A stretch of DNA of 64,000 bases from Arthrobacter sp. SDTb3-6 (GTDB lineage: Bacteria; Actinomycetota; Actinomycetes; Actinomycetales; Micrococcaceae): contig NZ_JAAMFN010000011.1 of assembly GCF_013376095.1 (NCBI RefSeq), forward strand, positions 1-64,000. Reading direction: 5' to 3'. The translations under genes and the position numbers were made by a program. Below are positions 1,579 to 38,608 of this stretch, one piece after another. The notes under the pieces are model-generated. The model ran no database searches, was not told where the DNA came from, and worked only from the letters and a program-made list of their open reading frames with translations. Positions within the stretch are counted from its first letter, which is position 1. Each line of letters opens with the position of its first letter.

Positions 1579-1645
1579 CGACAGCCACATAACCACTGCA
1601 TCGATTCCCCGCGGCCATTCCGTGCCTTGATAGTGATATCAGTAA

Positions 1646-1680: not shown

Positions 1681-1713
1681 ATAGATGACATGCATCACAT
1701 CAAAGGAGAGACA

Positions 1714-4354: not shown

Positions 4355-4428
4355 AGACCCGTCAAATGCCAGCGGCCGGCAGCCTGTCCGGCGCGCCGGC
4401 CGCTCCCTTCAAAAGATTGGTGAAAAAC

Positions 4429-5784: not shown

Positions 5785-5799
5785 CCCCGCGCACTCCAC

Positions 5800-5837
5800 G
5801 GAAGGCCGGTTGGAACTGAGGTTCCAGCCGGCCTTCC
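5800..5837 (+). terminator. Strong hairpin between the two MHS permease genes
   Basis: Arms 5800-5816 and 5821-5837 pair over 17 positions with one mismatch around a 4-base loop. The hairpin starts 16 bases after the first permease stop. No long T-run follows, which is common in high-GC actinobacteria. Confidence 0.75.
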
Positions 5838-5990
5838 GCGCGTTCGCATCTGGTCCATCCGTGTGGTTGGGCTCCCTGCGCCCACCCATTCTTAAGCGGC
5901 GGTTAAGAAACGAGCGGATCGCTGGCAGCGGGGATGTGACCCGTGCCACTGTGTTCCCATACCCAGTGACACACCACACAGGAGATTCCC

Positions 5991-8153: not shown

Positions 8154-9605
8154 ATGCGCGCCCGGCTGTTGCTGGTCCTTGCCATCCTGGCCGCCGTCAC
8201 GGCGGCCGGCTTCGCTGTCCCCCTGTCCCTGGTCACCTCCGAGTCCCGAACCCGCGAATTTGTGCTCAGCCGTGACGCTGATGTCCAGCGGCTCGCTGGG
8301 CTTGCCGAGGAATACGTCACCACAGGCAAGGCCGGGACACTTCCGGCGGAAATGGAAGCGTATACGGCACTTTATGGCGAGCCCCTGCTTGTGACCTCAA
8401 CCCTGGGCATCAAACCTCTGTCCACCGGCCTGGCCAGCAACGCCCTCGGCGTTCGCGAGTCGCTGGCCCGCGCGATCCGCAACCAACCGGCCCCGGTCCC
8501 GGCAGCCCTGACTCCCTGGTCTCCGCCCACCGTCCTGTTCGCCCAGCCCATCGGCAGTGACGTCCAAGTGTCCGGTGCCATCATTCTGGCCGCTTCAACC
8601 GAGGGTGCCAGGGCCGACATTGAACGCGCGTGGCTCCTGGCGCTGGCCGCGGTGGCGGCGGCACTGCTCATCTTTGGAGTCATCGCCCACGCCGTCAGCC
8701 GTTGGGTGCTCCGCCCTTTGGGCCGGCTCCGCCTGCGCGTGCGGGAGCTGGCCGCCGGATTGCCATTCATCCCTGTCCGCCCGGGCCGGCCGCAGCCATC
8801 CCCACGGGCCGGCGGGCCGCCCGAACTGCGCGAGCTGGCCGGCTCCTTCGATGCGATGGCCAGTGCCGTCACCGCGTCAACGGCGGCCCAGCAGCGCTTG
8901 GTGGCTGACACCGCACACCAGTTGCGCAACCCCCTGGCGGCTTTGCAGCTGCGCCTGGACACACTCGAAGGCCAAGTGGATGCAGCCAACCGCCCAAGAG
9001 TGCAGCGCGCCGGCGCCGAGGCTGAACGCCTGAACGCGATCCTGCGCGACCTGCTGGCCCTTGCCCGGGCTGAAACACCCCGTCCCCCAGTAAACGAAAG
9101 CTGCGATGCCTGGTCCATGGCCGCCGAACGGGTCAACTTCTGGTCAGTGGCGGCCCTGGAAGCAGGCACCCCACTGACCTTGGTCAAGTCCGACACCACA
9201 CACCGGGTCTTGGCACAGGAGCATCTCGTGCAGCAGTTACTGGACGTTTTGCTGGACAATGCCTGCAAGTATGCTCCGGGCGAGAAGGTAGTAGTCAGCG
9301 TCACCGCAGGACGGCGCAACACCGTGGTTGTGACGGTTGCCGATTCCGGTCCGGGCGTTCCCGCCTCAGACTTGGGGCGCCTGAGTGAAAGGTTCTTCCG
9401 CGGCGGCATTTCAGCCGACCGCGGTGCCTCGAATCCGCCTGGCACCGGCTTGGGACTGGCCATAGGCACGGCGCTGGCGGAAAACATGGGCGGGACCCTT
9501 CACCTCTCGCCGACGCCCGGGGGCGGATTGACGGCAGCAGTGGAACTTCCGGGTCTCCCCAACCCTGCAAACCCGGAATCGGTGCAGGAAGGAAGCGTAT
9601 CGTGA
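8154..9605 (+). CDS. Sensor histidine kinase, TctE-like
   Basis: A 483-residue membrane kinase. Transmembrane segments at about 4-26 and 161-183 enclose an extracytoplasmic sensor domain; a HAMP-like linker follows. The phosphoacceptor is H255 in DTAHQLRNPLAAL. The ATP-binding boxes are LLDNACKYAPG (N), DSGPGVP (G1), RFFRGG (F) and GTGLGLAIG (G2). It is translated with the response regulator and overlaps the next gene by four bases. The physical link to an exported TAXI binding protein suggests that the binding protein delivers a ligand to the sensor, as proposed for some TctE systems; this is inference. Confidence 0.9.
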   Translation: MRARLLLVLAILAAVTAAGFAVPLSLVTSESRTREFVLSRDADVQRLAGLAEEYVTTGKAGTLPAEMEAYTALYGEPLLVTSTLGIKPLSTGLASNALGVRESLARAIRNQPAPVPAALTPWSPPTVLFAQPIGSDVQVSGAIILAASTEGARADIERAWLLALAAVAAALLIFGVIAHAVSRWVLRPLGRLRLRVRELAAGLPFIPVRPGRPQPSPRAGGPPELRELAGSFDAMASAVTASTAAQQRLVADTAHQLRNPLAALQLRLDTLEGQVDAANRPRVQRAGAEAERLNAILRDLLALARAETPRPPVNESCDAWSMAAERVNFWSVAALEAGTPLTLVKSDTTHRVLAQEHLVQQLLDVLLDNACKYAPGEKVVVSVTAGRRNTVVVTVADSGPGVPASDLGRLSERFFRGGISADRGASNPPGTGLGLAIGTALAENMGGTLHLSPTPGGGLTAAVELPGLPNPANPESVQEGSVS

Positions 9606-10543
9606 CACCACACCATTTCACCGGCCGCCCACCGACCCGCCGTGCGCTCCTGGCCGCTGCAGGCGCCGCAATGGCTGCAGCCTTGGCCGGTTGCGACCGG
9701 CAGGAACCGGCCAAAATAGCGATGGCCGGCGGACAAGCAGGTGGCTTCTTTGCCCAATTTACCCAGCTCCTTGCCACCGCAGCGGCATCCGAACCTGCAT
9801 TCAGGATCGCGCCCCTGGAGACGCCCGGAACCCTCCAAAACCTTCAGCTCATGCGGGCGGGCCGCGCAGGGATTGGGCTGGTCCTGGCCGACGCGCTTGG
9901 CACGGACGTGGCAGGCCTGGCCGCCATCGGGCGCGTCTACCAAACCTATTGGCAACTCGCCGTTCCCCTCGGCTCGCCCATAAAATCCGTTGCCGACCTG
10001 GCTGGGCGCACCGTCAGCTTGGGGCCGGCACAGTCCGGAACACGCTTCACGGCACTGCGCATTCTGGCGGCCGCCGGTGTGGGCACCAGCGATTTCACCG
10101 AAAGCCCTATCGGGATCGGCGACACTGGATCCGCCTTGGTCAAGGGTGCCGTGGACGCTGCCCTGTTCGCCGGCGGGGTTCCCCTGCCAATAGTGGCAGG
10201 TCCGGCCGGCAACAGGATCCGTCTTATCGACCTGGGCGTCGAAGCCCTCCGGCTCCAACAAGAGTACGGGCCCGTTTACCAGTCCACCCGCATCCCGGCG
10301 GGTGTCTACGGCAATTCCGGGGAGACCCGGACGGTGGGTGTCGCCAGCCTGCTGTTGGCCCGGGCCGACCTGGCTGATGGGGTCGCTGGATCTTTGGTGG
10401 ACATTTTGGTTTCACGGTCCGCGGACCTGGTGCCGCCGGAAACGCTGGGGACGCAGTTTTTGGACCCGCGCGCGCTCATTACCACTGCCGGGGTCCCCCT
10501 GCATCCAGGGGCTGCTGCCGCCTACCGCCGGTGGCACGGCTAA
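9602..10543 (+). CDS. TAXI-type (TRAP) solute-binding lipoprotein
   Basis: A 313-residue extracytoplasmic binding protein. The N-terminus has a twin-arginine-like RR followed by an Ala-rich hydrophobic stretch and the lipobox LAGC, which predicts a lipoprotein. The mature part matches TAXI-family binding proteins (MAGGQAGGFF, LQLMRAGRAGIGLVLADAL, LGPAQSGTRFTALRIL, VKGAVDAALFAGG). No TRAP membrane subunits lie nearby, so it is an orphan. It overlaps the sensor kinase gene (GTG start within ATCGTGA), which argues for a role in signal detection rather than transport. Confidence 0.85.
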   Translation: MTPHHFTGRPPTRRALLAAAGAAMAAALAGCDRQEPAKIAMAGGQAGGFFAQFTQLLATAAASEPAFRIAPLETPGTLQNLQLMRAGRAGIGLVLADALGTDVAGLAAIGRVYQTYWQLAVPLGSPIKSVADLAGRTVSLGPAQSGTRFTALRILAAAGVGTSDFTESPIGIGDTGSALVKGAVDAALFAGGVPLPIVAGPAGNRIRLIDLGVEALRLQQEYGPVYQSTRIPAGVYGNSGETRTVGVASLLLARADLADGVAGSLVDILVSRSADLVPPETLGTQFLDPRALITTAGVPLHPGAAAAYRRWHG

Positions 10544-10562
10544 GACGCCGCAAGGGGGCGTC
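10544..10562. terminator. Short hairpin shared by convergent genes
   Basis: GACGCC (10544-10549) pairs with GGCGTC (10557-10562) between, and overlapping, the stops of the TAXI gene and the GntR gene. It could end transcription from both sides, but the stem is short. Confidence 0.45.
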
Positions 10563-11250
10563 AGGCGGGGGTGCGCTGGCCTTCTCCTTGGATCCGCGCG
10601 TCAAAGTTGTCCGCCAGCAGTTCGCCCGCATGGGTGAGGTGATCTTCCATGGCCCGGCGGGCCGCGTTGGCATCTCCAGCGGAAAGGGCGTCCAGGACCT
10701 TTCCATGGTCTTCCACGGTGGCCTGCTGCCACCCCGGGATGGAAGCATAAAACATCCGGGGGACGTACCGCACCGTCAGCCCGAGCACCCAAAGGATCTT
10801 ACGGGAGTCTGCCAGGTGGTTGATGATCCGGTGAAAGGCGTGGTTCTTTTCCTCCAGAAGCCCGGTGTCGTTCCGCGCGGCGGCCGCCATGAGTTCATGG
10901 TGGAGCGCGGAGAGTTCCGCCAGATCGCCGGGGCCGACGCGGCCGGCAGCGCGTCCGGCCAACTCGCCGCCCAAGAGCGCCTGTGCCCGGAACAGGTCCC
11001 GAATGTCCCCTCCGGTCAGCGGCGCCACTTGGAAGCCGCGGCGGGGAACCAATTCCAGAAACCCTTCCACGCGCAGCAGTTGCAACGCCTCCCGGGCCGG
11101 CGTGGTGGAAATGCCCAGTCGCTCGCCGATCGTTTCCGGGCGCACTTGCGTTCCTGGCCGCAACTCCCCGGACATGATCAGCGCCCGTGTGTAGGCGGCC
11201 GCCTCGTCGCTGAGTTGCGGGCGCCGCCCTCCTTGCTGAGTTTCCGTCAT
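10561..11250 (-). CDS. GntR-family regulator, FadR/FCD subfamily
   Basis: A 229-residue regulator. The GntR winged helix occupies about residues 12-75 (YTRALIMSGELRPGTQVRPE, then IGERLGISTTPAREALQLLRVEGFLELVPRRGFQV). The all-helical FCD ligand domain follows, with the metal-site histidines in LHHELM and HAFHRIINH. It is read in the same direction as the CoA-transferase/lyase/hydratase genes behind it, with 36 bases before it, so it may be the last gene of that operon. It probably responds to an acid or CoA ester of that pathway. The repeated CAATATATTATGT sites at 13938 and 14034 are its most likely operators. Confidence 0.88.
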   Translation of the reverse strand: MTETQQGGRRPQLSDEAAAYTRALIMSGELRPGTQVRPETIGERLGISTTPAREALQLLRVEGFLELVPRRGFQVAPLTGGDIRDLFRAQALLGGELAGRAAGRVGPGDLAELSALHHELMAAAARNDTGLLEEKNHAFHRIINHLADSRKILWVLGLTVRYVPRMFYASIPGWQQATVEDHGKVLDALSAGDANAARRAMEDHLTHAGELLADNFDARIQGEGQRTPA

Positions 11251-26408: not shown

Positions 26409-26603
26409 AGCACGTCAGTACGACCGGTAACTGACGGCACCCTGTCCGTGCTATCGCCCGGGAAGCCGATAGGTCCGCTTCAAGCCGGGGGCCAGACCGG
26501 GCTGGCCGAGATGAACCGGCAGGTCGCCGAAAACCTCGACACCATCATCGGCACCCTCGAGGTCGACGCCCTCCAGTCCGACGGGACAGCCGATGCCCGC
26601 TGA
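26409..26603 (+). pseudogene. C-terminal remnant of a tyrosine recombinase (TnpB-like)
   Basis: The frame is open from a stop at 26406 and ends with GLAEMNRQVAENLDTIIGTLE followed by a short tail. This is the kind of C-terminus seen on large tyrosine recombinases of Tn554-like transposons. Its stop overlaps the start of the DUF6262-like gene (ATGCCCGCTGA), the usual order of such elements. The catalytic domain is absent, so this is the scar of a lost element. Assignment rests on tail similarity and gene order. Confidence 0.6.
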
Positions 26604-26835
26604 AAACTCCGGGCACCTGGCCGCCAGCGCCCGCCGCCGCCACGAACTGGCCCGATCCAAAACGATCCGAACCCTACGGAAACTCGACAAGTCCGGCGCC
26701 CCTGCCTCATTCGAAGCCGTCGCCCGCCACGTCGGGGTAACTCGGGTCTTCCTCTACACCCAACCCGATCTCCGCGCAGAAATCGAAATGCTCCGCGACG
26801 CCACGGGGCGGGCACCCGCCCCGTTATCTTTTTGA
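26593..26835 (+). pseudogene. DUF6262-like (TnpC-type) transposon accessory protein, truncated
   Basis: An 80-residue product: HLAASARRRHELARSKTIRT, then FEAVARHVGVTRVFLYTQPD and LRAEIEMLRDATGRAPA. The helix-turn-helix-like VARHVGVTRVFLY and the YTQPDLRAEIE segment are typical of the small third protein that follows two tyrosine recombinases in Tn554-like elements. Those proteins usually continue with a coiled coil of 40-60 residues, missing here. The frame ends inside a GC-rich hairpin near the edge of the IS1380-like element. The overlap with the recombinase tail supports translational coupling in the ancestor. Confidence 0.65.
26803..26833 (+). terminator. Rho-independent-type hairpin over the end of the DUF6262-like gene
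   Basis: ACGGGGCGGG (26803-26812) pairs perfectly with CCCGCCCCGT (26815-26824) and is followed by TATCTTTTT. It looks like an intrinsic terminator but lies inside the 3' end of the reading frame. The loop would be only two bases, so the inner pairs probably open. Confidence 0.55.
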
Positions 26836-27101
26836 TAGTCCCTAAAAAGAGGATCATGGGGACTGTCGGCCGGCCAGCCTCGGCATGGTGTCTTGCCCCT
26901 GTCTAGCCTCGAACTTTCATGAGGCGGGGTTTCTGGCGGATCAGGGCTGACCGTCTGCCTGGTGGTTCCTATTGTGGCATTTGGGTGTGACATTCTGGCC
27001 GCTGACCTGTGGGGCGGTTGTCGGTGACGGGTTCCACGCCGGTCACGGTGGTGCTGGTTCTTGGCTTTCTGGTGAGTGTCGGATGGTCGGCTGCTTGCCG
27101 T

Positions 27102-28461
27102 TTATGGTGGGCTGAGCGCGGCGATCCGTTTCACTCCCTGAAGCAGCAGTTGGACCTCTGGTGCCGTGGAGGCCAGGTGCAGGGTGGTTTGGCGGGCGTG
27201 CGTGGCGAGTTTCCCGCCGATTTCAAAGAGCCTGGCCCGGAGCTTCTTCGGCTCCCAGCGTCTGGCTTTGGTGTCTTTGAACCCGATCATCTGGGTCCAG
27301 GCCATGATTTCCGTGGCCATCATGACGACATGGCACCACAGCTCGTTGGCGGTGAAGGACTTAAACGGCAGGTTCGCGAAACCGGTGTCCTTGGCGTTGC
27401 GGATACGGTCCTCGCACCGGGCCCGGAGGCGGTGGCGGACTTCCAGGTCGGCCAGCTGACCCTTTTCCTGGTTCGTGGCGATCGCCGTGTACCGGTGCCC
27501 GTCGATATCGGTGATCCGCAACTGCGCACCCACGTGCGGGACTTCCTTCCGCACGATGATGCGCATCCCCTTTGGCCACGAGGACAGATCGAGTATCCCG
27601 GTGATGTCGGCCACCCAGGCGCCGTCCCGTTCGGTGCCGTCACTGTCATAGGCCCGGGACCAGCCGTTCTTCGGGATCAGCGGCAGCATCTTCGCGACGG
27701 CATCGGTGATCGTGAACCCGACGGAGTAGGAGAAGTTGCGCCCCTTTGCGGTGAGCCAGTCCAGGAACCCATGCGTGCCACCGGCGGAGTCCGTGCGGAT
27801 CATGATCTTCCGCCCTGGCCGCCACCCGGCCGGCAACTACTTCAGGGAGTCTTTCACCACCTGGATGTGATCGGCGATGGTGTTGGAGCCGGCGTTGCCG
27901 GGCCGCAACAACGTCACCAAGGGCTCCCCGGTGCCCAACTGGCCATGGTCAAGGTAGGAACACAAGGGGTGGAAGCCGAAGCCCTTCTTCCACGTCGGGC
28001 GGGCGTCATCCTTTTCCGAATGGGAATTCACCAACGAAGCGTCAAGGTCAATGATCAGGGGCTTGTCCTTGCTGGCACCGTGCAGGGGCGAGTCTTCCCC
28101 GGCCTGCTCCCACACATGCGCCCTGGCCGCGGCCCGGGCCTTGTTGATCGCCACCAACGCCCTCTCCGGCCGCACGGTGGCCAGGACCTTGAACAGGCGG
28201 CTGATCGTGGGATCCGAGGCGTTCAAACCATAAACTTCGGGCTGGTTGCGGAGCCGGTCAATGTCCGAGACGAAGTCCCCGCCCGTGGCCAGCGACAGCG
28301 CAAGATCGGTGAGGATCTTGCCCGGATTGTGGATGGCGAACGGCTTGCGCCACGGCCCCAACCCCTCGGACAACCCAGCCGTGAGCCCGGATGCCTTCAG
28401 CATCTCCGTCAGGACGATCCCGCCGCCCTGGGACACGACACCATCACCAGTGCCATCAACT
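27102..28461 (-). pseudogene. IS1380-family transposase, nonsense-mutated and split
   Basis: The two halves are open frames 27837-28461 and 27102-27836 on the minus strand, separated by a single in-frame TAG at 27837-27839 (DSLK-stop-LPAGWRPGRK). Family relatives typically have Gln there, so one C-to-T change explains it. DDE-transposase segments are LIIDLDASLVNSHSEKDD, GNAGSNTIADHI, MIRTDSAGGTHGFLDWL and CEDRIRNAKDTG. The N-terminal codons lie beyond the IS21-like insertion at 38259-38303, where the frame reads RPTGFYPSV before VRVDGTGDGVVSQ. The codon at the expected start is ATA. The element is therefore very probably inactive. Confidence 0.82.
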
Positions 28462-28617
28462 TGGCAAATACGGCCTGATGGTACGGGCAGTCCGGGTAGG
28501 TGGTACCGCTGATTTCGGCGACCCGGTACCGACCAGGAACCGCGGAACTCGGTTTCTGGCCAGCACCAGGGTTGACCGCCGCCGGGAGTGCGCTGGTGCG
28601 TTGCCGGAGTGTGGCGG

Positions 28618-28873
28618 TTATTCCCAGTGGTCGGTGGCGTCGCGGGCTTCTTGGGCATGCAGCCGGCGCATGTCGACGTCGCCGAGGTTGATCGTGCGGG
28701 CCCGGCTTGCGAGCCGGTTCACGATGGAATCGGCGGCGACTTTCTCCGGCAGGCTTTCGATCCAGTATCTTGGTCCGGATTGACTGGCGATCATGGTGGG
28801 CAGCCGCTGGTCCCTGTTGACCAGGACGGTGAATAGGTCGTTGGCTGCGGTCTCATCGATGCCGATGGTGAGG
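28618..28873 (-). pseudogene. istB: istB, 3' part (beyond the RIT insertion)
   Basis: The frame encodes FLTIGIDETAANDLFTVLVN, then QRLPTMIASQSGPRYWIES, VADSIVNRLASRARTINLGD and DMRR, and stops at 28618. This is the C-terminal third of an IstB ATPase: sensor region plus the SIVNRL helix. Joined at AAGTCGTC to the part at 32271-32782 it restores LLIIDDFLTIG, the Walker B region. Confidence 0.88.
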
Positions 28874-28973
28874 AAGTCGTCTCATGTGAAGCAAAAGATT
28901 ATGCGAAGTTCATGTCGTCTGGCCCAGGCTGTCAGCCTCGGTGGTGTCGGTCGCTTCGCATAATTCTTGGTCG

Positions 28974-29969
28974 TTAGAGCAGATTGCGCAGCCATGTGTG
29001 CAGGTCTGCTCGTTGCTCCTTCCCGTAGGGGCTGTGGGGAACTATGTTTTGTTCGGCTGCTTCGATGGCGCGGCGTTTGGTTTCGGTGCTTGCCCGGGCG
29101 TAGATTTCCGTGGTGGTGACACTCTCGTGTCCAAGGAAATCGCGGATGTAGACCAGGTTCACACCGGCGTCGAGGAGATGCATGGCTTTCGAATGCCGCA
29201 TGATGTGGGGATGCGAACTCGAGGGAACTTCCGCAGGGTGGGCGCAGTGGGCGGCGGCGACGCTCTTTTGCAGCACATATGCGACACCGGCCCTGCCAAG
29301 CCGGTTTCCGCTATGGTTCACGAACAGCGGATCCGTCAGCTCTCCGTTGGGACGAACTGAAGCGATGTAGCGCACCAACATTTCACCGACTTGGTTGGAG
29401 AGAGGAATCACGCGTGCTTTCCTCCCCTTCCCGACGACTTTGGCAGTGTGGGGGCGTGAAAGCGTTAGGTCACCGACCGCCAAGCCGCATAGCTCACTGA
29501 CTCTGGCGCCCGAGTCGTAGAGCAGGGACACGATCGTTAGGTCCCGCAAGTTGGCGGATGCGGTGCCGACGACGAGTTGCACGGCTCGTACGCTGAGAAA
29601 TTCGATCTCCTCGGTTTTTGGTGTCTTCACGGATGGTATCTCGAGGAGACGGCGACAAATCTCGATGTGTTCGGGAGCCTCAGCCTGCACGAACTTTGCA
29701 AATGATCTGATGGCGGCGATGCGTGCGTTTGAGGTGGAAGCGGCGCATTGGCGTTCCTCGCGAAGCCAACCACTGAATCGGCCGATATGGTCAGGGTCGA
29801 GGTGTGCCATGGTGACCTTGTCTGGTGGCACAGCTTCGCTGCTGTCCATCCACTTGAGCAGCAGCACAAACCCATCACGGTATGAGGCGATGGTGTGGGC
29901 GCTGAGCCCTCGTCTTTTCGGCAGGTAGTCGATGAGGAAGGACTGCAGCAGCGACTGAAACTCCCTCAT
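28974..29969 (-). CDS. ritC: Tyrosine recombinase, third of the RIT trio (RitC)
   Basis: A 331-residue tyrosine recombinase. A SAM-like core-binding domain occupies about residues 1-100 and the catalytic domain follows: Arg in DSGARVSELCGL, Lys in VVGKGRKARVIPL, HIMRH, then LGHESVTTTEIYARAS with the nucleophile Tyr. All catalytic residues are present, so it should be active. Its ATG overlaps the RitB stop (ATGA). RIT recombinases are thought to act together on the terminal repeats; the division of labour is not known. Confidence 0.9.
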   Translation of the reverse strand: MREFQSLLQSFLIDYLPKRRGLSAHTIASYRDGFVLLLKWMDSSEAVPPDKVTMAHLDPDHIGRFSGWLREERQCAASTSNARIAAIRSFAKFVQAEAPEHIEICRRLLEIPSVKTPKTEEIEFLSVRAVQLVVGTASANLRDLTIVSLLYDSGARVSELCGLAVGDLTLSRPHTAKVVGKGRKARVIPLSNQVGEMLVRYIASVRPNGELTDPLFVNHSGNRLGRAGVAYVLQKSVAAAHCAHPAEVPSSSHPHIMRHSKAMHLLDAGVNLVYIRDFLGHESVTTTEIYARASTETKRRAIEAAEQNIVPHSPYGKEQRADLHTWLRNLL

Positions 29970-30913
29970 GACGCACCACCGAACACGCGTTGTGACACTG
30001 GCTCTTGCGCGTCAATGATCCGCAGCAACGTGTCCTGGGTGAACCTGAGGTAATACTCGGTGCTGGTGATGTCGGCATGGCCCATGTAGGTGGCGAGAAG
30101 GGGCAGTGCGACATAGACATCCATCCTGCTGTCGACCATCTTTTCAAGCGCGTGAACCGCATACGAATGCCTGAGATCATGAGGGCGAATGGGCTTGCCC
30201 TTGTCTGTGAGAACGCCGGCCCGGGCGAAAACGCTGCGGAGCGCGACACCCGCGTGGTTGCCTTTGGGGACATTGCCGCGCGCCGTTGGCATCAACGGTG
30301 ACGTGCCACTGGCACCGGAGAGGCCGCACCGATCCAAATAACCCGCGGCGTACTCCCACAGTGATGCCGACATCGGGAGCAGCCTGGTCCTGTCACCCTT
30401 GGCATGTCTGATCAGGATCGTGCCCGCACTGATGTCCAGGTCAGACACTGCCAGCGCGCAGGCTTCACCGATGCGGATGCCACAACACCACAGCAGCCGC
30501 AGCAGCAATCGACGCGCCTCGGATACGGTGCGGTCCGCAGTGGCCAGGATGTGGGCCATCTCGGGTGCGGTCACGATCCTCGGCACAAAATCGGTCGTGC
30601 CGCGTACGAGCCCCGCGGGCGGAATCGCCGGCGTGTAGCCCTTGCTCGCAAGCCACAGACAGAACTGACGCAAAATCGCGATGCGTTTGCACTGGTTCGA
30701 TACCGCTTCGCCTGGTTTCCTGCCGGTCAGTTTTTCCATGGCAACCCGGGAAACAATGCCGGAGTCGACCGGGTAGTCGGCGATGAATCGTGCGATCTCC
30801 CGCAGCACGTATTGGTAGCCCGTGGCGATGGAGTAGCCCAGCGAGCGTTTGTAGCGCACATAGCCGGTGAACAGTTCGCCGTGCGGGCCTGGGAAGACGA
30901 TGATGTCATCCAC
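29966..30913 (-). CDS. ritB: Tyrosine recombinase, second of the RIT trio (RitB)
   Basis: A 315-residue recombinase from GTG 30913 (MDDIIVFPGPHGE), just inside the RitA 3' end; a longer frame to 30949 overlaps RitA more and adds an unlikely Cys-rich start. Catalytic residues: Arg in CCGIRIGEACAL, Lys in RHAKGDRTRLLPM, HDLRH, and MGHADITSTEYYLRF with the Tyr nucleophile. It is coupled by overlap to RitA and RitC, indicating fixed stoichiometry. Confidence 0.9.
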   Translation of the reverse strand: MDDIIVFPGPHGELFTGYVRYKRSLGYSIATGYQYVLREIARFIADYPVDSGIVSRVAMEKLTGRKPGEAVSNQCKRIAILRQFCLWLASKGYTPAIPPAGLVRGTTDFVPRIVTAPEMAHILATADRTVSEARRLLLRLLWCCGIRIGEACALAVSDLDISAGTILIRHAKGDRTRLLPMSASLWEYAAGYLDRCGLSGASGTSPLMPTARGNVPKGNHAGVALRSVFARAGVLTDKGKPIRPHDLRHSYAVHALEKMVDSRMDVYVALPLLATYMGHADITSTEYYLRFTQDTLLRIIDAQEPVSQRVFGGAS

Positions 30914-32141
30914 GGGGCACCTCCAACGACAGAACACGCAGCCTTTCAACGTCGATGGCCATGTACTTGCGCGTGGTGTTGGCGTTCGAATGCCCCAATA
31001 TTCCCGAAATCACCGGGTACCCAGTGTGCCCCGAGAGCATGTTGGTTGCTGCCGAGTGGCGCAGCGAATGCATCCCGTGATGCTTACCCATGGTGTTCAC
31101 GGATGCCCGCACGTAGGCACCGGTGGCGACGTAGTGGAACGCGTTCACGGCGTCCTCGAAGCTGTCATGGGGTGCACGATGGTGCAAAAATACGTGCTCA
31201 TTTGGGTTCTTGGGTCGCTCGTTGCGCAGGTAGTCGGCCAGGGCAAGCATCACTTCCTCCGGCAGGGGCAGCCTGACAGGGTTACCGGTCTTGGCCTGCG
31301 TGAACCGGACCTCGCGGGCACGCCAATCCAGACTCCCCAAACGCAACGCTCTAATATCGCCCGCGCGCATCCCGAGGACAGATGCCAGGAGCAGCATTGC
31401 CCGATCACGTCTGGGGCACCCCGCTCCCGTTGCAGCGACCATCGCGGCAACCTCAGTGACTGCGTATGCCGACGGCAACGCAGCATGCTTATGCCCTGGA
31501 ATGACCGGCATCGCAGCCGCGACGGCCGGACTACACAATTCCTCGCCGGCCGCCCACGCCGTGAATGCGCGGATGGCATAAAGGATCCCGGCCCGTGACT
31601 GCGCGGTCATCCAGGAACACGCTTCGAGGTGGGCGGTGACATCCTCCATGGAGAGATCAGTAAAATCATTGATCCTCAACCCGACCATGAACTTTCTGAT
31701 CAGGCAGCTCTGGCCACGGATTGAGGAACGTGCAAGGCTGCGCTGCTCAAGAACGGACACATATGCGTCAAAGACGTGCCGAAATCGATCAGGTACATCC
31801 TCAGACAGTGCCCTCGAATAAGGCGGCAGACACCCGTCATTGTCCAGGGAAAGTAGGGTCCGCACCTGCCTGAGCATCTTGCGATTGACACGGGAAAGAA
31901 CATTCCCGTTCAGCCCCATGTCCACGATGAACTGCTCTTCCTGCTCCCTATCGAAGCATTTGATGTCTCGCTCGGAGCACCATCGCCTGGCCTTGTTCCA
32001 CGAACTTTTGTAATGCTGGATCGTACCGGGCATGTACCCGAGTTCAGCGAGCATCTGGCCTGCCTGAGAAGCCAGCTCGTCAATGTTCTTACTCATACCA
32101 TTGCCTCCAAATGTCAAGGGATTGACATCATGCCAAGGCAA
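30906..32141 (-). CDS. ritA: Tyrosine recombinase, first of the RIT trio (RitA)
   Basis: A 411-residue recombinase, the longest of the three as is usual for RitA. The N-terminal region (QAGQMLAELGYMPGTIQHYKSSWNKARRW) is a core-binding domain with an added head. The catalytic domain shows Arg in VLGMRAGDIRAL, Lys in TQAKTGNPVRLPL, HSLRH and LGHSNANTTRKYMAID with the Tyr. It starts close to the right inverted repeat, so the promoter probably lies within the terminal region and could be controlled by recombinase binding. Confidence 0.9.
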   Translation of the reverse strand: MPWHDVNPLTFGGNGMSKNIDELASQAGQMLAELGYMPGTIQHYKSSWNKARRWCSERDIKCFDREQEEQFIVDMGLNGNVLSRVNRKMLRQVRTLLSLDNDGCLPPYSRALSEDVPDRFRHVFDAYVSVLEQRSLARSSIRGQSCLIRKFMVGLRINDFTDLSMEDVTAHLEACSWMTAQSRAGILYAIRAFTAWAAGEELCSPAVAAAMPVIPGHKHAALPSAYAVTEVAAMVAATGAGCPRRDRAMLLLASVLGMRAGDIRALRLGSLDWRAREVRFTQAKTGNPVRLPLPEEVMLALADYLRNERPKNPNEHVFLHHRAPHDSFEDAVNAFHYVATGAYVRASVNTMGKHHGMHSLRHSAATNMLSGHTGYPVISGILGHSNANTTRKYMAIDVERLRVLSLEVPRG

Positions 32142-32250
32142 ACTGCGGAGGATAAGGGTGTGAGTTATGCGAAGTTAAACTCGCTGCCGGAACACAGGCG
32201 ACGGGCCAGACCAAGCGAACTTCGCATAATCTTTTGCTTCACATGAGATG

Positions 32251-32274
32251 ACTTATGCGAAGCTTCGCATAAGT
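32251..32274. repeat. Perfect 24-bp palindrome at the right RIT boundary
   Basis: The 24 bases from 32251 to 32274 read the same on both strands and are built from two head-to-head copies of ACTTATGCGAAG. The core TTATGCGAAG is also the repeated motif of both RIT ends. It lies between the right terminal repeat and the flanking istB sequence and is absent at the left end. Confidence 0.85.
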
Positions 32275-32782
32275 CGTCGATGATGAGCAGGTCAACGTCG
32301 CTGAGCTTGTTGAGCAGGTTTTGGTGGGCGATCCTGTCGCCGCGGGCGATGACCAGTTCCAGTGCCAGCTCGTCCATCCGGGTGTAGTGGACCGAGTGCT
32401 CCGCATGGCACGCGGCGATCCCTATCGCGCAGGCGATGTAGGTTTTCCCGGCGCCCGTGGGGGAAATCAGCAGCAGGTTCGTCGGGTCCGCCCGCCAGTC
32501 ATGGGCGGCGTAGCGTTGCATTCGCACCGAGGAGACCCCGCGCGCGGGCAGGTACCGTATCTCTTCGATCGAGGCGTGCGGGATGGGGAACCGGGCCTTG
32601 CCTATGAGCTTGTCGATGCGGTTTGAGCGCCGGACCTCCAGGGCTTCATCCACTGCGGTGAGGAAGAGCTCCTCCGGGGTTTTGAGGTCGTTGCCATCGT
32701 CCTTGAGCAGTTCCTCGAGTTGGAGGGCGACCTGGGTGATGCGCAGCGCCCGGAATTTCTCGTAATCAACACTGGTGAACAT
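32271..32782 (-). pseudogene. istB: istB, 5' part (IS21 transposition helper ATPase)
   Basis: The N-terminal two thirds of IstB from ATG 32782: FRALRITQVALQLEELLKD, then SIEEIRYLPARG, the Walker A motif SPTGAGKTYIACAIG and LLIIDDL at the break. After the break the frame runs into RIT sequence and ends at 32165. The six bases between this start and the istA stop show the usual coupled istA-istB order. Confidence 0.9.
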
Positions 32783-32788
32783 ACCCTG

Positions 32789-33361
32789 CTACCGGCCTTC
32801 CTGGTAGTAGTCTGCGCCGCGGACATACACGTCGCTGCGTTCCGCTGTGTCGGTTGCGGCCGGTGCCTTCTTCGTGTTCGGGGCCGCCGGCAGTGGCGGC
32901 GCCGCTTGTTGGCTGTCACTGTTCATCGAGGCCATCAGCCGCTTGAGCGTGGTGTAGGTCGGATAGCCGTGCTGGTTCAGGATCTGCTGGCACGTCGCTT
33001 CCAGGCGTTGCCTGTTGTTCTTGCCCAGGCCCTCCAGGATGTTCTGGCAGTCCAAAAAGGCCTGAGCCTGGATTTTTGGCCGGTCAAGGACCATCTCGAT
33101 CACCTTGATCGTGGCGGGGCCGAAGCTTCGGGCGCGGTCAAGGAACCATTTCCGGGACCAGAGGCCGTGCACGTCCTGATGCTGCTTGGGCACGTGTTCG
33201 ACCATGGTTGAGTACTGGCCCTTGCGCCCGTGCTTGCGCGGATGCTCACAAGCCACAGCGTCGCCGTCAAAGATGGTTACCTTCACGCCGGTCAGCCGGA
33301 CCTTCAAGATCCGACCCGTCAGCTTGTAGGGCACCGAGTAGTGCTGGTAATCGGCGGTGAC
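32789..33361 (-). pseudogene. istA: istA, 3' part (IS21 transposase C-terminal region)
   Basis: In frame this part reads VTADYQHYSVPYKLTGRI, then KVTIFDGDAVACEHPR, HVPKQHQD and FLDRARSFGPATIKVIEMVL, the beta-barrel and C-terminal region of IstA. It joins in frame to the part at 37108-38124 (KVGRNYH followed by VTADYQ). The codons from 33362 upward belong to the inserted recombinase element. Confidence 0.88.
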
Positions 33362-33411
33362 ATGTTCTCTGAACTCGAATGAGTCATATATATCATCGCG
33401 AATCGCCGGCG

Positions 33412-35871
33412 TCAGCCAGCGGGCTGGTGGCCGATGGTCGGGATGCCGAGGGCGACGGATGTGTTGGTGCGCCGTTGTACTTGGGCCAGTTTGTCTTCGG
33501 CGCCGGCGAGACTGACTTCGAGGCCTTCGACTTCACCGAGCCAGCCTTGCTCATGGGCTTCGACGACGCGGGCTTTGAGGTTGTCGCGGATCTCGAGTAG
33601 GCGGGTCTGCTGGTTCGGATCGGGCCAGAGCAGGGAGCAGCGGATGCAGGCGTGTTCGTGGATGCAGTTGCTGCCGAACGCGCGGCCGCAGGTCCCGACG
33701 GATACCTTGCGGCGTTGGAAATGGCCAAGGAATTGCTGCCACTCGTCGTCGGTGGGCTCGCGGTATTCCTCGCTCGGTCGCAGGGTGCGGCGCCGGGCGA
33801 TAAACGCCCGGTGGGCGGTGATCGTTTCCTCTGGATAGACGGCCTTGTATCCCATGGTGACGCCGATGTCCTGGTGACCGGCGATGACCTGCGCGATGTG
33901 CGGCGGAAGCCCGTTCATGATTGCATCGGTGATGAAGATCCTGCGGAAATCATGCGGGGTGAACCGGAGCGGCTGCCCGTCATCAGGGCCTGTCAGGCCG
34001 GTGCGTGCCAGCGCTTCGTCGAGCAGGGTGGAGACAAATCGTGCGGTGATGGCGCGGTGTTCGCCGTTGACGAGGTGTTGGAACAGGAGCGGGGCAGGTC
34101 GGCGCCAAACCAGTTCGTGCTCGTCTCTCGCGCTGACCAGGGGGATGGTGCCCTCGGGTTTGCGGTGGCGGCTGATGATCGTGGAAAGCACCTCGGCCAG
34201 TTCGGGGCTGACCACCAGCAACCGTTCGGTGTCGGTTTTAGATGGGGCGATCTGCAAGAGCGGAACGAGTTCCCCACTGTCCGGCAGCCGGTATTGGATC
34301 AGGCTGTGGTGGCTGATCTCAAGCAGTTCCTCGATGCGGACGCCGGTGTGCCGCAGCACCTCGATGACCGCCCACGCCCAAAATGCATGGTCTTCATCGC
34401 GGTTGAGCAGGGTTTTTTTGGCGGTGTCCGGGTTGGTGACCCAGACGTTGGCCTGCGTGCCGTGCGGACGTTTAATCCTGGTCATGGTGATGCCGTCGGA
34501 GGTGAACGGTTCGCCGGGCGCGGCGCGTAGCCCGGCGGCGAGGAGCGCCGCCGTTTGACGGCGCCATGTGTTAGTGGAGTTGGTCAATACGGGCATTACC
34601 GGCAATCGGGAGCGGGTGCGGCTGTCCATGCGCGCCTTGCGGTGCCGCACCATTTTCCGGCGTGACAGATCGTCCTGGCTGATAGGACACGGTGCCACCC
34701 ATGGGGCCCATCGACTGGGGTCTTCCAGTGCCCACTGGGACAGGTCGAGGTAGAACGCCCGGACCGCTGCCAGAATATCCAGGTGCGACAGTCGCTCGGT
34801 CTCGATCTGGATTTCCTTGCCGTCGCGGACAATGGTGCGGGTTTTGGTGCTTAGTCGTCGCTTCCACGCGCCGGCAATATTGCGGGGTAGGTTCAACGAT
34901 TCGATGCCCTGGTGGTGGCGTTCCAGGTCGGCCCAGAAGCAGCGGACCAGCGCGTAGGCCAGCGACAGCAGTGTGGAGTAGTCGACGGACGGCTGCCGCT
35001 CACGTAGGTAGTCGACGAGCAGTTCGCGTATTGGGGTGCAGGCAATGTTGTAGCGGTCGACGAGTTGTTCGACGGTGCGTTGCCCGATGCTGTGGATCTG
35101 TTTGAGGCTCGGTACGTCTGCTGTAATGATCCCGGCTTGCCGCAGGACGCGGATGCTCGCCCCGGCCGAGGGTGCTTTGCCGCGAAGCTCCTTCTCCAGG
35201 TCGATGACCTCGAGGACATCACCGACGGTGATGTCCTCGACCGTGCCGCCTTTTGCGGCGACGATCACGGCGCAACGAAACAGGACGTGCTTGCCCACGT
35301 CGGTGCCGACTGTCTCGTCACGGTCGCAGTGGTCTCCCAACCGGGCGAATCCTTCACCGTCGCGGGTACGGGTCAGGTGACGGACCAGCTTGCGTTTCTT
35401 TCCTCCGGTCAGCAGCCACCGCAAGGACGGGCGAACCACATCGAGTCCGACGGCGATCAGGAAGGAACTGGTCATCACCTCCAGCCGGGAGGGCGAGTAG
35501 TCGCCGTGCTCACGTAGCCACCGGGCGGGCAGCTCGGCCCAGTCGTCGCCCGCCGCGTCCGCTCCGCTGGCCAGCCATCGTTCCTGCCAGGTGTCGCCCG
35601 GGTGCTCTGACAACCAGTCCAGGAGCATCAACAATCCGCGAAGGCCCAGCAGTCGCATCGATTTCGATACCGGGGCACACAGCGCTTCCGACGCCTGTTG
35701 ATCCAAGGTCTGCCTGTCGACGCCGGTGGCCGGCCACCGATCGACGGTGGGCCTCGGGGGAAACCGTGCCCGCCATGCGGCCACGTCCCTGGTGTCATCC
35801 GACTGTGGTGGCCAGTCGCCGTTGGTGTCTTTGCTTTGTTCTGCCGGGGCCATAACGGCGCTGATGCTCAT
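33412..35871 (-). CDS. Large tyrosine recombinase, TnpB-like
   Basis: An 819-residue recombinase. The catalytic domain lies at about 500-720: Arg in RHTGVRIEELLEI, Lys in IAPSKTDTERLLVV, HDFRR, and AGHQDIGVTMGYKAVY with the Tyr. A long N-terminal extension of about 480 residues and a C-terminal Cys/His cluster (CGRAFGSNCIHEHACIRC) match the TnpB type of Tn554-like transposons. Two residues of the classic RHR triad read as HDFRR, consistent with that group. The gene starts four bases inside the end of the upstream recombinase gene. It should be active. Confidence 0.87.
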   Translation of the reverse strand: MSISAVMAPAEQSKDTNGDWPPQSDDTRDVAAWRARFPPRPTVDRWPATGVDRQTLDQQASEALCAPVSKSMRLLGLRGLLMLLDWLSEHPGDTWQERWLASGADAAGDDWAELPARWLREHGDYSPSRLEVMTSSFLIAVGLDVVRPSLRWLLTGGKKRKLVRHLTRTRDGEGFARLGDHCDRDETVGTDVGKHVLFRCAVIVAAKGGTVEDITVGDVLEVIDLEKELRGKAPSAGASIRVLRQAGIITADVPSLKQIHSIGQRTVEQLVDRYNIACTPIRELLVDYLRERQPSVDYSTLLSLAYALVRCFWADLERHHQGIESLNLPRNIAGAWKRRLSTKTRTIVRDGKEIQIETERLSHLDILAAVRAFYLDLSQWALEDPSRWAPWVAPCPISQDDLSRRKMVRHRKARMDSRTRSRLPVMPVLTNSTNTWRRQTAALLAAGLRAAPGEPFTSDGITMTRIKRPHGTQANVWVTNPDTAKKTLLNRDEDHAFWAWAVIEVLRHTGVRIEELLEISHHSLIQYRLPDSGELVPLLQIAPSKTDTERLLVVSPELAEVLSTIISRHRKPEGTIPLVSARDEHELVWRRPAPLLFQHLVNGEHRAITARFVSTLLDEALARTGLTGPDDGQPLRFTPHDFRRIFITDAIMNGLPPHIAQVIAGHQDIGVTMGYKAVYPEETITAHRAFIARRRTLRPSEEYREPTDDEWQQFLGHFQRRKVSVGTCGRAFGSNCIHEHACIRCSLLWPDPNQQTRLLEIRDNLKARVVEAHEQGWLGEVEGLEVSLAGAEDKLAQVQRRTNTSVALGIPTIGHQPAG

Positions 35872-37031
35872 GGTGTGGCCTTTCCAAAGAGCACGGCGAG
35901 GGTTTCTGGCGAGTAGCCCGGCGCCGGCGGCGGCGGCTGTTCGACGCGGTCACGGGCGGAGTGGTGCGCCAACACGCGGGCGATCACGTCCTCTTTTCGC
36001 GGCGTGATGTAAATCTGGGTGGTTGTCAGCCGGGCATGGCCAAGGACGTATTGCACGTCTGTGAGCGGCATCGAGGGGTCCTCGGCCATCCGGTAGGCAG
36101 CGGTGTGCCGAAGCGCGTGTAGCGTTGCTTCTTGGCCGGCCGCCTGGCCGGCACGCTCAAACATGCGATGTGCGGCGTGGTAGGTCAACGGCCGCGCCGG
36201 CCGGTCCAGCGTCCACCACAACGGCTGCAGGGGGCCCTGCCCGATCGCATCTTTCATCTCGACCTGGTACAAACGTAGCCACACAAACGCGTCTGGTGAC
36301 GCCGGCAATTCCTGCACTTCCCGGGTTCCCTTGCGCACCACCGTTATCAGTTGCCTTCCGGGGTCCACGCCTCCCTGAGTGGCCGATAACAACTCCGAGG
36401 CGCGCGCACCGGTAGACACGTAGAAGGCCACCATGGCGCGGTCCCTGTTCGAGCGCAACTTCGCGAAGATGTCGTCGAAAACCCGATCAGGGATGCTCCG
36501 TGGAATCCGGCGCTGCGGCTTGGGCCGGTACAAGCCCGACTTTTCCAGCCGGTAGGGATCCATAGGATTGTGATGGGCGTTCGCCCGTCCGGCGCGTCGG
36601 GACCGAGCAAGCGGGAACGGATTGACCAACGGGCCCGATCCGACATCGCGGTGGAAATCGTAGAAGCCCCGCAGCACCGTCTCGCTGTGGAGCCGGGCTG
36701 AAATTGAATACCCGCGGCCCTCCCGGGCCACCACTGCCAGCCAGCGGCAGAAATCCCGCGCCTCGATCCGGGTCGCCCGATCCCAGGCCACGCCAATCGC
36801 CCACAAGAAACGGAACCAGCGTAGTAGATCCATGCCATACGAGCGGACGGTTGCCTCGCTGCGCCCGGCCGCCAGCAGATCAGCGAAAAACGCCTCGACG
36901 GCATGGACTGTTCCGCCGTCCGCGCCCACCAGCCGATACGGCTCCCACCGCGACCCGGTTGCCTCCAGCGAACCGCCCGCAGGCACACGCAGATATTCCA
37001 ACTCCCTGGAACAATCAGATTCTTCGACCAT
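35868..37031 (-). CDS. Tyrosine recombinase, TnpA-like
   Basis: A tyrosine recombinase of 387 residues from ATG 37031 (MVEESDCSRELEYLRV); the frame is open to 37082 with TTG and ATG alternatives, none with a clear ribosome site. Catalytic residues: Arg in VSTGARASELLSA, Lys in VVRKGTREVQELP, HALRH and LGHARLTTTQIYITP with the Tyr. The core-binding domain lies at about 50-170. It overlaps the large recombinase gene by four bases, the A-B order of Tn554-like elements. Confidence 0.87.
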   Translation of the reverse strand: MVEESDCSRELEYLRVPAGGSLEATGSRWEPYRLVGADGGTVHAVEAFFADLLAAGRSEATVRSYGMDLLRWFRFLWAIGVAWDRATRIEARDFCRWLAVVAREGRGYSISARLHSETVLRGFYDFHRDVGSGPLVNPFPLARSRRAGRANAHHNPMDPYRLEKSGLYRPKPQRRIPRSIPDRVFDDIFAKLRSNRDRAMVAFYVSTGARASELLSATQGGVDPGRQLITVVRKGTREVQELPASPDAFVWLRLYQVEMKDAIGQGPLQPLWWTLDRPARPLTYHAAHRMFERAGQAAGQEATLHALRHTAAYRMAEDPSMPLTDVQYVLGHARLTTTQIYITPRKEDVIARVLAHHSARDRVEQPPPPAPGYSPETLAVLFGKATP

Positions 37032-37107
37032 GATCCAAGACGCTATGTCCCCAGCTGACCCGTCCCTCTGCGACATGCCCAAACCCGGCAGGCTGTTCAG
37101 TCAACAG

Positions 37108-38124
37108 GTGGTAATTCCGCCCGACTTTCAGCTGCTTCCATTCCACGGATTCAAACCGTTCCGCCGGCAAGGGCTGCAGCAGCGGCGCTTCCTCTTCGGT
37201 GAACTGCTCGGCCCTGGTCGTGCCATCCACCCGCCTGATCTGGCCGTTGATCTCATCGACCCGCTCCTCGATGGCCGTGTTCAATTCCGCCAGAGTGCTC
37301 CAGAGTTCCTCGGCCAGGTACCCGATGACCCGCTTGTTGGCGACGTTGACCGCAGATTCTGCGGCCGCCTTGTCGCGGGGCCGGTTCGATCTGGCCGGCA
37401 CGATCGCCGTGCCGTAGTGGTCGGCCAGTTGCTGGTACTTGGCGTTGACGACCCGGGTGCTATCGCCCTTGCTGTGCCGGTTGGTGGCGGTCGCAGCATT
37501 GTCTGGCACCACGATCGGGGTGACGCCGCCATAGAACTCAAAAGCCTGAACGTGGGCGCTGTTCCATGCCTCCTGCTTCATATCGGTAAACGCCGTGCAA
37601 AAGACCATGCCCGAATACGGCAGCACCGCCACGAACAGGTACGCCTTGGTCACCTCGCCGGTCACGGCGTCGATGAGAGGCAGTGTGTCCCCGGCCCAAT
37701 CCACCAACATCGCCCGGCCAGGTTCGTGGTGCAAAGTGGCCACGACCTCGTGAACCGCCGCGTAGTCGTTGAACAACTGACAGAACTGCGTATAGCCGTA
37801 CTTCCTTCCCTGCACCGCAGGCGCCTGGACGTACCGGTGCCAGGCCTGCTGCAGGGTGTAATGCCGGTTGAATTTCATCGAATTCACAATCCCGGCGAAG
37901 TCCGGCTGCACGAAGCCGGCCGAGACGTTCTTCCTGCCATCAGGGAACAGCTCCGCCAGTTCATCCCGGCTCATCGAGCCCGCCTGTGCCGCCGTGATTC
38001 CACGGGCCTTGACAGTCTTACTCACCAGGGAAACCTCCCGGCGTGAACAACCCACCATCTGAACAATCTCGCGGTAGCTTCGGCGCTCCAACACCAACGC
38101 CATGATCGCGCTGTAATCAGCCAT
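37108..38124 (-). pseudogene. istA: istA, 5' part (IS21 transposase)
   Basis: From ATG 38124, behind GGAGAGGG, the frame encodes the helix-turn-helix (SYREIVQMVGCSRREVSLVSKT) and most of the DDE domain. The first acid lies in AMLVDWAGDTLPL, the second in TPIVVPDNAATA, and the Glu region in SNRPRDKAAAESAVN. The last native codons are VGRNYH. The frame runs past the insertion point to 37015 in element sequence. A normal gene apart from the insertion. Confidence 0.9.
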
Positions 38125-38323
38125 CAAGGGCCCTCTCCATCAACGCGGCGTCACCGAATGTGCCGCCGGTATTCCAAGAGGACCACAGCGGTACCGCCTA
38201 GCCGAAACGAGCGGTACCATCTACCCGGACTGGCGGTACCCTGAAGCCGTATTTGCCACAACTCGAACAGAAGGGTAAAAACCGGTAGGGCGTATCCGGT
38301 TAGCTCAGGTGTAAGTTGGGTCC

Positions 38324-38608
38324 ATGGCACGTCCGGACTTTCCTCGGTCGATCCTGGAGTTCCAGGCAAGGTTCGGTGACGAGTCGTCCTGCTTGAAATA
38401 CTTGTTTGCCTGCCGATGGCCGGAAGGCTTCGTTTGCCCACAATGCCAGGGGCGAAAGGGCTGGCCCCTTGCAACGCGGATTCTTTGGGAATGTGCTGAC
38501 TGCCACCGCCAGACTTCACTCACGGCCGGGACAGTGTTGCACAAGACCCATCTGCCGCTCCAGAACTGGTTTTGGGCGGCTTACCTGTTTAGACGAGGCT
38601 TTTGGTAG
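38324..38608 (+). pseudogene. IS1595-like transposase, N-terminal fragment
   Basis: A 94-residue fragment. The N-terminal zinc-ribbon of this transposase group is clear: FVCPQCQGRKGW, then LWECADCHRQTSLTAGTVLHKTHLPLQNWFWAAYL. Family members continue for about 200 further residues with the DDE domain, absent here. The break falls after WAAYL (about 38588), where unrelated sequence begins. It probably truncated, or was truncated together with, the IS1380-like element to its left. Confidence 0.82.

What the first reader, a model, noticed from the sequence alone, without database searches (positions are those of the whole stretch)
26880..38320. Three-level nest of transposable elements with readable insertion history
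An IS1380-like element is split by an IS21-like element, shown by the 5-bp duplication CAACT at 28457-28461 and 38259-38263 and by the restored transposase frame (YPSVRVDGTGDGVVSQ) across the join. That element is in turn split twice: a RIT element in istB and a two-recombinase element in istA. Each excision restores a coding frame. The order of events can be read directly, which is rare.
Basis: partly seen in the sequence, partly recalled or inferred. Interest (0 to 1): 0.85.

Follow-up and report, generated by a model that had tools for sequence, protein, structure and literature searches.

The report
Jumping genes that target other jumping genes
A soil bacterium carries a transposon split by two smaller mobile elements, and comparison with relatives suggests that both small elements do not land at random but tend to aim at highly conserved, often catalytic, parts of genes, most of the identified ones belonging to other transposons.

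Summary
The nest is real. An IS21-family element (28462-38258, duplication CAACT) splits a decayed IS1380 transposase; its istB holds a RIT (28882-32272) and its istA a Tn554-related two-recombinase element (33365-37104). Relatives with empty sites confirm both joins. That the order "can be read directly" is only partly supported: nesting shows containment, and both inner elements look site-specific. In Arthrobacter dokdonellae an identical two-recombinase element (3743/3743 columns) sits at the same base of istA in two IS21 backbones 84-88% identical. Five of six close RIT copies (window included) interrupt istB at its Walker B codons, in both orientations, one in an IstB only 31% related; the sixth, a fragment, does not abut istB. 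More widely, 18 of 51 RIT insertions viewed got a target, 16 in genes of other mobile elements; of 18 two-recombinase elements with both ends found, 12 lie in transposase genes. RIT target specificity is listed as not tested in PMC10214605. Best reading: two kinds of tyrosine-recombinase transposon whose attachment sites are conserved-motif codons, mostly of other transposons. The circle mechanism is inferred, not shown.

The parts
26904..28456 (-). 3' part of a decayed IS1380-family transposase gene (in-frame TAG at 27837-27839)
   Evidence: Pfam DDE_Tnp_1_4 on both pieces; 80% to the IS1380-family copy of A. dokdonellae
28457..28461 (.). target duplication CAACT, left copy
28462..38258 (-). 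IS21-family element, interrupted twice
   Evidence: inverted repeat, ends and duplication, IstB_IS21 and rve
28618..28881 (-). istB, from Walker B to the stop codon
28876..28881 (-). 6-bp core (GACGAC in istB sense: Asp-Asp codons), copy on the istB 3' side
28882..32272 (-). RIT element, with its 20-bp palindrome at the istB 5' side
   Evidence: empty sites in L072, L073, L087, L089, L090
30906..32141 (-). first RIT gene, tyrosine recombinase of 411 aa (called RitC in my scripts; by its extra N-terminal part probably RitA of the literature)
   Evidence: Phage_integrase, R-H-R-H-Y motifs
29966..30949 (-). second RIT gene (RitB), tyrosine recombinase of 327 aa
28974..29969 (-). third RIT gene, tyrosine recombinase of 331 aa (called RitA in my scripts; probably RitC of the literature)
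32247..32252 (.). inverted inner core GATGAC, possibly a fossil of an earlier target
   Evidence: equals the core of the L090-type istB
32253..32272 (.). 20-bp perfect palindrome TTATGCGAAGCTTCGCATAA
32273..32278 (-). 6-bp core, copy on the istB 5' side
32273..32782 (-). istB, start codon to Walker B
   Evidence: IstB_IS21
32789..33364 (-). istA, C-terminal part to the stop codon
   Evidence: Mu-transpos_C_2 below its cut-off; alignment to uninterrupted IstA
33365..37104 (-). Tn554-related two-recombinase element, ends TTGACTGAACT / AGTTCAGAGAA, 6-bp flank exchange
33412..35871 (-). long tyrosine recombinase, 819 aa
   Evidence: Phage_integrase, motifs
35868..37082 (-). short tyrosine recombinase, 404 aa
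37105..38124 (-). istA, N-terminal part with the DDE domain; its last 6 bases (37105-37110) are the foreign footprint
   Evidence: rve
38259..38263 (.). target duplication CAACT, right copy
38264..38287 (-). 5' part of the IS1380 transposase gene (homology ends here)

Best explanation
A three-level nest built by two site-specific tyrosine-recombinase transposons that use conserved-motif codons of transposition genes as integration sites. (1) Shown: an IS21 copy inserted into an IS1380 transposase gene with a 5-bp duplication. (2) Shown by structure, inferred as event: a RIT integrated into istB at the Asp-Asp codons of Walker B. (3) Likewise a Tn554-related element integrated into istA at the codons of the RNYH-V motif. 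(4) Inferred for the RIT: a circular form with its ends joined as end, core, 20-bp palindrome, inverted core, end recombines one of its two 6-bp cores with the Asp-Asp/Glu codons of the target. This would explain why RITs are found in both orientations while the palindrome lies on the istB 5' side in the 3 of 3 cases where both sides are held, and why the inner inverted core can differ from the outer ones. (5) Inferred for the two-recombinase element: Tn554/SE-type integration with a 6-bp spacer, one side native and one brought from the donor. Aiming at motifs that transposases can hardly change would give such elements many mobile targets and disable the host transposon. Order of events is mostly open.
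For: Nest. Two-recombinase element: identical (3743/3743) in two IS21 backbones 84-88% identical, flanks identical for only 9 and 41 bases; same istA motif in a Streptomyces plasmid whose IstA is about 28% related, with partial evidence in L167 and L185. 18 loci with both ends: istA 9, IS110 2, Tn3 1, NlpC/P60 2, LGFP 1, DUF6262-like 1 (below cut-off), unassigned 2. RIT: istB split at profile positions 161-166 in L099 and L114 and at the matching codons in the window; one junction each in L100 and L075. RIT 85% but istA 69% DNA identity between window and Cryobacterium luteum, opposite orientation, so separate insertions. Further RITs: istA 4 (L103, L198, L204, L207), rve transposase 2 (L118, L208), group II intron RT 2 (L196, L209, both splitting RVT_1 at about 119-126), IS630-type 2 (G096), tyrosine recombinase 1 (L077), YhcG nuclease 1 (L084), amidoligase 1 (L113).
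Against: 33 of 51 RIT insertions had no assigned target (contig ends, no terminal repeat found by my script, or no family recognised), so the share in mobile genes may be biased. The close RIT fragment L076 (third gene 88% over 80 aa) does not abut istB. In L075 the core reads GATGCC, not Asp-Asp/Glu codons. 6 of 18 two-recombinase elements are not in recognised transposase genes. Window, L072 and L073 are close kin, so the 9 in istA are not 9 independent events. Both kinds of element sit in transposon-rich DNA, which raises the chance of hitting such genes; I ran no random-position control. Several targets rest on one side by profile and the other by eye (L084, L096, L103, L113, L169, L198, L207); for L198 the N-side piece gave no Pfam family. 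No circle, excision or integration was observed. Window, L072 and L073 share one foreign 6-mer, which the donor-left-flank rule of SEs does not predict for successive jumps between these copies.
Confidence: 0.75

Rival explanations
1. Plain nesting: three unrelated elements inserted one into another at random in a transposon-rich region; the depth of nesting is the order of insertion.
For: Containment and restored frames; the window has a TrwC-type relaxase gene and an IS1595-type remnant, so hits on transposons are not surprising.
Against: The same istA base is hit in IS21 backbones 84-88% identical and istB is hit at Walker B in five RIT copies.
Confidence: 0.1
2. Composite inheritance: the elements entered an ancestral IS21 once, and IS21 with its passengers has since moved as one unit; nesting depth is then opposite to the order of events at this locus.
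For: A. dokdonellae has a 99.7% identical IS21 with the same two-recombinase element at another locus with another duplication; the foreign 6-mer is shared by all three copies.
Against: Two-recombinase copies of window and L073 differ more (1.9%) than the backbones (0.27%), p = 2e-10; the RIT is missing from both A. dokdonellae copies; RITs occur in opposite orientation in other IS21s. No second IS21 of this type was found in the genome to help in trans (draft assembly of 144 contigs).
Confidence: 0.2
3. Gene conversion or homologous recombination between IS21 copies spread the two-recombinase element, not site-specific insertion.
For: Same base, same orientation, same foreign 6-mer in L072 and L073, both in one strain.
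Against: Exchange would have to end within 9 bases of the element on one side and 41 on the other; it cannot explain the same motif being hit in an IstA about 28% related.
Confidence: 0.13

Closest known systems
RIT (recombinase in trio) elements (PMC3414803, abstract and the section on recombinase combinations read; PMC2864759, one passage read; Ricker 2013, recalled only)
   Same: Three consecutive, overlapping tyrosine recombinase genes; about 3.4 kb; inverted ends and a palindrome. Insertions in a Tn6049-like transposase gene, radC and an IS66 tnpA were reported.
   Different: The parts read describe no target rule; here close copies interrupt Walker B codons of istB in both orientations. 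PMC10214605 Table 1 lists RIT target specificity as not tested (passage).
Tn554-related actinobacterial transposons (Famint36/41 of PMC3414803)
   Same: One abnormally long and one normal tyrosine recombinase, no TnpC; the plasmid pRHL2 of Rhodococcus RHA1 in its Table 2 holds L093 here (55% and 66% aa).
   Different: Target genes are not described in the section read; here L093 and eight others lie in istA.
Tn554 and strand-biased circularizing elements (PMC10214605, passages read)
   Same: Large plus ordinary recombinase, target specificity, 6-bp footprint next to the element.
   Different: Those insert at a few genomic sites (Tn554 in radC, recalled); no TnpC-like gene inside this element.
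IS21 family
   Same: istA, istB, TG..CA ends with long inverted repeats, 5-6 bp duplication.
   Different: Both genes are interrupted, so this copy should not move by itself.
IS1380 family
   Same: DDE_Tnp_1_4 transposase.
   Different: Interrupted, with a nonsense codon; ends not settled.

Membership tests
RIT element | three adjacent overlapping tyrosine recombinase genes | tested here: met
   overlaps of 4 and 44 bp in the called ORFs; R-H-R-H-Y motifs in all three
RIT element | gene types RitA, RitB, RitC in order | tested here: inconclusive
   lengths 411, 327, 331 aa in transcription order; NCBIfam has no Rit model among the hits; the extra N-terminal part of the first gene fits RitA as described in PMC8138268 (passage)
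RIT element | inverted ends, palindrome, about 3.5 kb | tested here: met
   (52 nt, 90%)
RIT element | mobility | tested here: inconclusive
   empty sites and opposite orientations in relatives; no movement observed
Tn554-related actinobacterial transposon | one long (over 600 aa) and one normal tyrosine recombinase in tandem | tested here: met
   819 and 404 aa
Tn554-related actinobacterial transposon | third gene tnpC (absent in the Famint36/41 type) | tested here: not met
   only 47 and 22 bases remain outside the two genes; as described for Famint36/41
Tn554-related actinobacterial transposon | 6-bp flank exchange, no long target duplication | tested here: met
IS21 family | istA and istB, terminal repeats, short duplication | tested here: met
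IS21 family | intact transposition genes | tested here: not met
   both interrupted
IS1380 family | DDE_Tnp_1_4 transposase | tested here: met
IS1380 family | terminal repeats and target duplication | tested here: inconclusive
   homology to a relative runs 26904-28456 and 38264-38287; no duplication recognised

The most novel reading that the evidence does not exclude
RIT elements and the long/short-recombinase Tn554-like elements form a class of homing-like transposons: each lineage has an attachment site made of the codons of a hardly changeable motif (Walker B, DDE acidic residues, PQGG of reverse transcriptase, H-x-x-R-H of recombinases, KTD of IS110), mostly in other mobile elements. They are thus hyperparasites that switch off and ride on transposons, and RITs integrate through a circle with a palindromic joint that allows either orientation.
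Probability: 0.53. Interest if true: 0.82.

Novelty: new variant of a known kind. Interest (0 to 1): 0.63.

Why it matters
The elements belong to described kinds, but a target rule for them did not appear in what I could search (listed titles and abstract starts; the RIT survey of 2013 was not seen). If the rule holds, it says where RITs insert, gives a test system for how three tyrosine recombinases act together, and shows natural recombinases that recognise codons for key residues in proteins as different as AAA+ ATPases, DDE transposases, reverse transcriptases and recombinases. It would also mean that nested mobile elements cannot be dated by nesting depth alone.

Tried and rejected
Searched the own genome by DNA for further copies of the IS21, RIT and two-recombinase element: none beyond the window, so no local helper copy was found; a second, distant RIT was found by protein at G000:C96, next to an istA piece. 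The idea that the targets are only istA/istB was rejected: other relatives use IS110, Tn3, IS630-type, group II RT and recombinase genes and some non-mobile genes. Spread by gene conversion in A. dokdonellae was judged unlikely. Choosing the target frame by open length alone misled in GC-rich loci; I used profile hits, Pfam and likeness instead. The terminal-repeat script found nothing usable for many RIT loci, which stay unassigned; five short RIT contigs (L124, L129, L130, L131, L134) were not examined at all. My script labels RitA and RitC were given by position and are probably swapped against the literature. Structure prediction was not used; the PDB search served only to place IstB.
Full report
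What was claimed.

Checking the nest. The IS21 copy runs 28462-38258 between TGGCAAATACGG and CCGTATTTGCCA, with CAACT on both sides and a 70-nt inverted repeat. Pfam finds DDE_Tnp_1_4 on both pieces of the IS1380 gene tested, IstB_IS21 on the istB start, rve on the istA start and Phage_integrase on all five recombinases. Joining the IS1380 halves restores one frame and aligns over 1583 columns at 80% with an IS1380-family copy of A. dokdonellae that has an open frame; the window copy carries a TAG at 27837-27839. The search tool places the window's host in the same genus as G182, and G182 contig C2 has the length and match position of A. dokdonellae plasmid pDCT5.

Empty and filled relatives. 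IS21 copies without either inner element occur in G202 (L087) and G192 (L089); L090 (G143) lacks both within its aligned part, and L088 (G098) lacks the two-recombinase element in the part held. A. dokdonellae has two copies with the two-recombinase element and without the RIT: chromosomal L073, duplication CTCAGC, equal to the window at 2599 of 2606 backbone bases (the last 50 bases, disturbed by an insert in L073, left out); and plasmid L072, duplication CCACG, 84-88%. The two-recombinase elements of L072 and L073 are identical over 3743 columns, while the flanks agree for only 9 bases on one side and 41 on the other. So the element most likely entered the same base of two different IS21s. 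Between window and L073 the element differs at 72 of 3743 positions but the backbone at 7 of 2606 (p = 2e-10), which favours separate insertion there too; the shared foreign 6-mer CACCTG (istA sense) speaks the other way and is not resolved.

The two-recombinase element. Its ends, TTGACTGAACT and AGTTCAGAGAA, recur in relatives, so insertion sites could be read: of 46 loci scanned, 18 showed both ends; the other 28 are mostly more distant or cut off. In istA: window, L072, L073, L091, L093, L095, L096, L098, L169 (9 of 18). Profile hits lie on both sides in the window's kin, L091, L095 and L098, and on one side in L096 and L169; L093 rests on likeness to L169. In IS110 transposase, both after KTD: L078 and L079; Tn3 transposase: L097; NlpC/P60: L172 (Pfam) and L170 (by likeness); LGFP: L094; DUF6262-like below cut-off: L092. 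L168 and L174 are unassigned. Window, L072, L073 and L091 share one istA motif although the Streptomyces IstA is about 28% related; L167 and L185 show one side or a fragment of the same arrangement. Next to the element lie 6 bases that belong to the target on one side and are foreign on the other; in L078 and L079 the foreign 6-mer GACGTG still codes Asp-Val, as if carried from another IS110 (inference). This resembles the 6-bp footprint of Tn554 and SEs described in PMC10214605 (passages).

The RIT. The closest RITs (by the third gene, 28974-29969) were found in Cryobacterium luteum (87%), Pseudarthrobacter sulfonivorans (81%) and a Brevibacterium MAG (73%), and as remnants in G115 and G094. 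In the first three and G115 the junction lies in istB; with the window that is 5 of 6 close copies, while the G094 fragment L076 does not abut istB. Walker B is met on both sides in window, L099 and L114 (profile positions 161-166), on one side in L100 and L075. The IstB of the Brevibacterium case is 31% related to the window's. RITs of C. luteum, Brevibacterium and G115 are inverted relative to window and Pseudarthrobacter. IstB was placed against the solved IS5376 IstB by sequence. Around the insertion there is a 6-bp core of two codons, GAC GAC (window, L099), GAT GAA (L114) or GAC GAA (L100); L075 reads GATGCC. In window, L099 and L114 a 20-bp palindrome (one with mismatches in L114) plus an inverted core lie on the istB 5' side, whichever way the RIT points. 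A circular joint of end, core, palindrome, inverted core, end that recombines one core with the target gives exactly this; that is inference. In the window the inner core is GATGAC while the outer ones are GACGAC; GATGAC is what the L090-type istB has.

More distant RITs. Of 51 RIT insertions looked at (window 1; 41 in the loci; 6 plasmid ones; 2 in G096; 1 on a viral contig), I could assign a target to 18: istB 5, istA 4 (own genome L198, L103, L204, L207), rve transposase 2 (L118, L208), group II intron reverse transcriptase 2 (L196, L209; both split RVT_1 at about 119-126), IS630-type 2 (G096; only HTH_32 found by Pfam, the VLCMDE motif recognised from memory), tyrosine recombinase 1 (L077, Phage_integrase split at 133/134), YhcG nuclease 1 (L084), amidoligase 1 (L113). 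Both sides are supported by profiles in L099, L114, L204, L118, L196, L209, L077 and, with HTH domains on one side, L208; in L103, L207, L084 and L113 one side is by profile; in L198 the C-side is by profile and the N-side piece gave no Pfam family. Sixteen of the 18 are genes of other mobile elements. The other 33 are unassigned and count neither way. The neighbourhoods are transposon-rich and I ran no random-position control, so the share in mobile genes alone is weak evidence; the repeated use of the same codons is the stronger part.

Gene names. In transcription order the RIT genes code for 411, 327 and 331 aa. My scripts called the last one RitA and the first RitC; by the two core-binding domains given for RitA in PMC8138268 (passage) the literature names are probably the reverse. 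NCBIfam did not decide it. No conclusion depends on it.

Order of events. Shown: containment. Suggested: the RIT may be the latest, since the nearest known IS21 backbone has the two-recombinase element and no RIT; precise loss there is not excluded. Not settled: whether the two-recombinase element was in istA before this IS21 copy entered IS1380.

What is known. PMC3414803 (abstract and section on recombinase combinations read) defines both element kinds and mentions RITs in a Tn6049-like transposase gene and in radC; PMC2864759 (one passage) a RIT in an IS66 tnpA; PMC10214605 lists RIT target specificity as not tested; passages of PMC8138268 were read. The rows listed by searches showed, by title and abstract start, no paper on RIT or Tn554-like targeting of IS21 or of catalytic motifs; Ricker 2013 was not seen and may contain part of this.

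Recounting led to these changes: gene labels, 5 of 6 close RITs instead of five of five, the L075 core, one-sided evidence named, istB and istA end coordinates. Confidence was lowered slightly, from 0.78 to 0.75, because of the L075 core and the one-sided cases.

Verdict.

Noticed in passing
window 26593-26835: A DUF6262-like (TnpC-type) ORF below the Pfam cut-off, perhaps a remnant of another Tn554-like element just outside the IS1380 piece.
   Followed up: no
window 38324-38608: Truncated IS1595-type transposase (Zn_ribbon_IS1595) right of the nest.
   Followed up: partly
window 58460-62488: TrwC-type relaxase with helicase domain, so the window may lie on a mobilizable plasmid.
   Followed up: partly
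L198 (G000:C96) 2481-5955: A second, distant RIT in the same genome, next to an istA piece at the catalytic-Glu motif, with its own palindrome TTATCCCGAATTCGGGATAA.
   Followed up: partly
L086 (G056:C70) 9343-10713: One open frame fuses IstA to the C-terminal end of a RIT third-gene recombinase, as if a deletion joined an IS21 and a RIT.
   Followed up: no
L113 (Succinimonas amylolytica) 1073-6492: An IS21 (istA, istB) lies inside a RIT, between its first and second gene: the reverse nesting.
   Followed up: no
G096:C37 end and C42 start: Two contigs break at the window RIT's exact 20-bp palindrome, each next to an IS630-like transposase piece, although the best match to the window's first RIT gene in that genome is only 32% identical.
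   Followed up: partly
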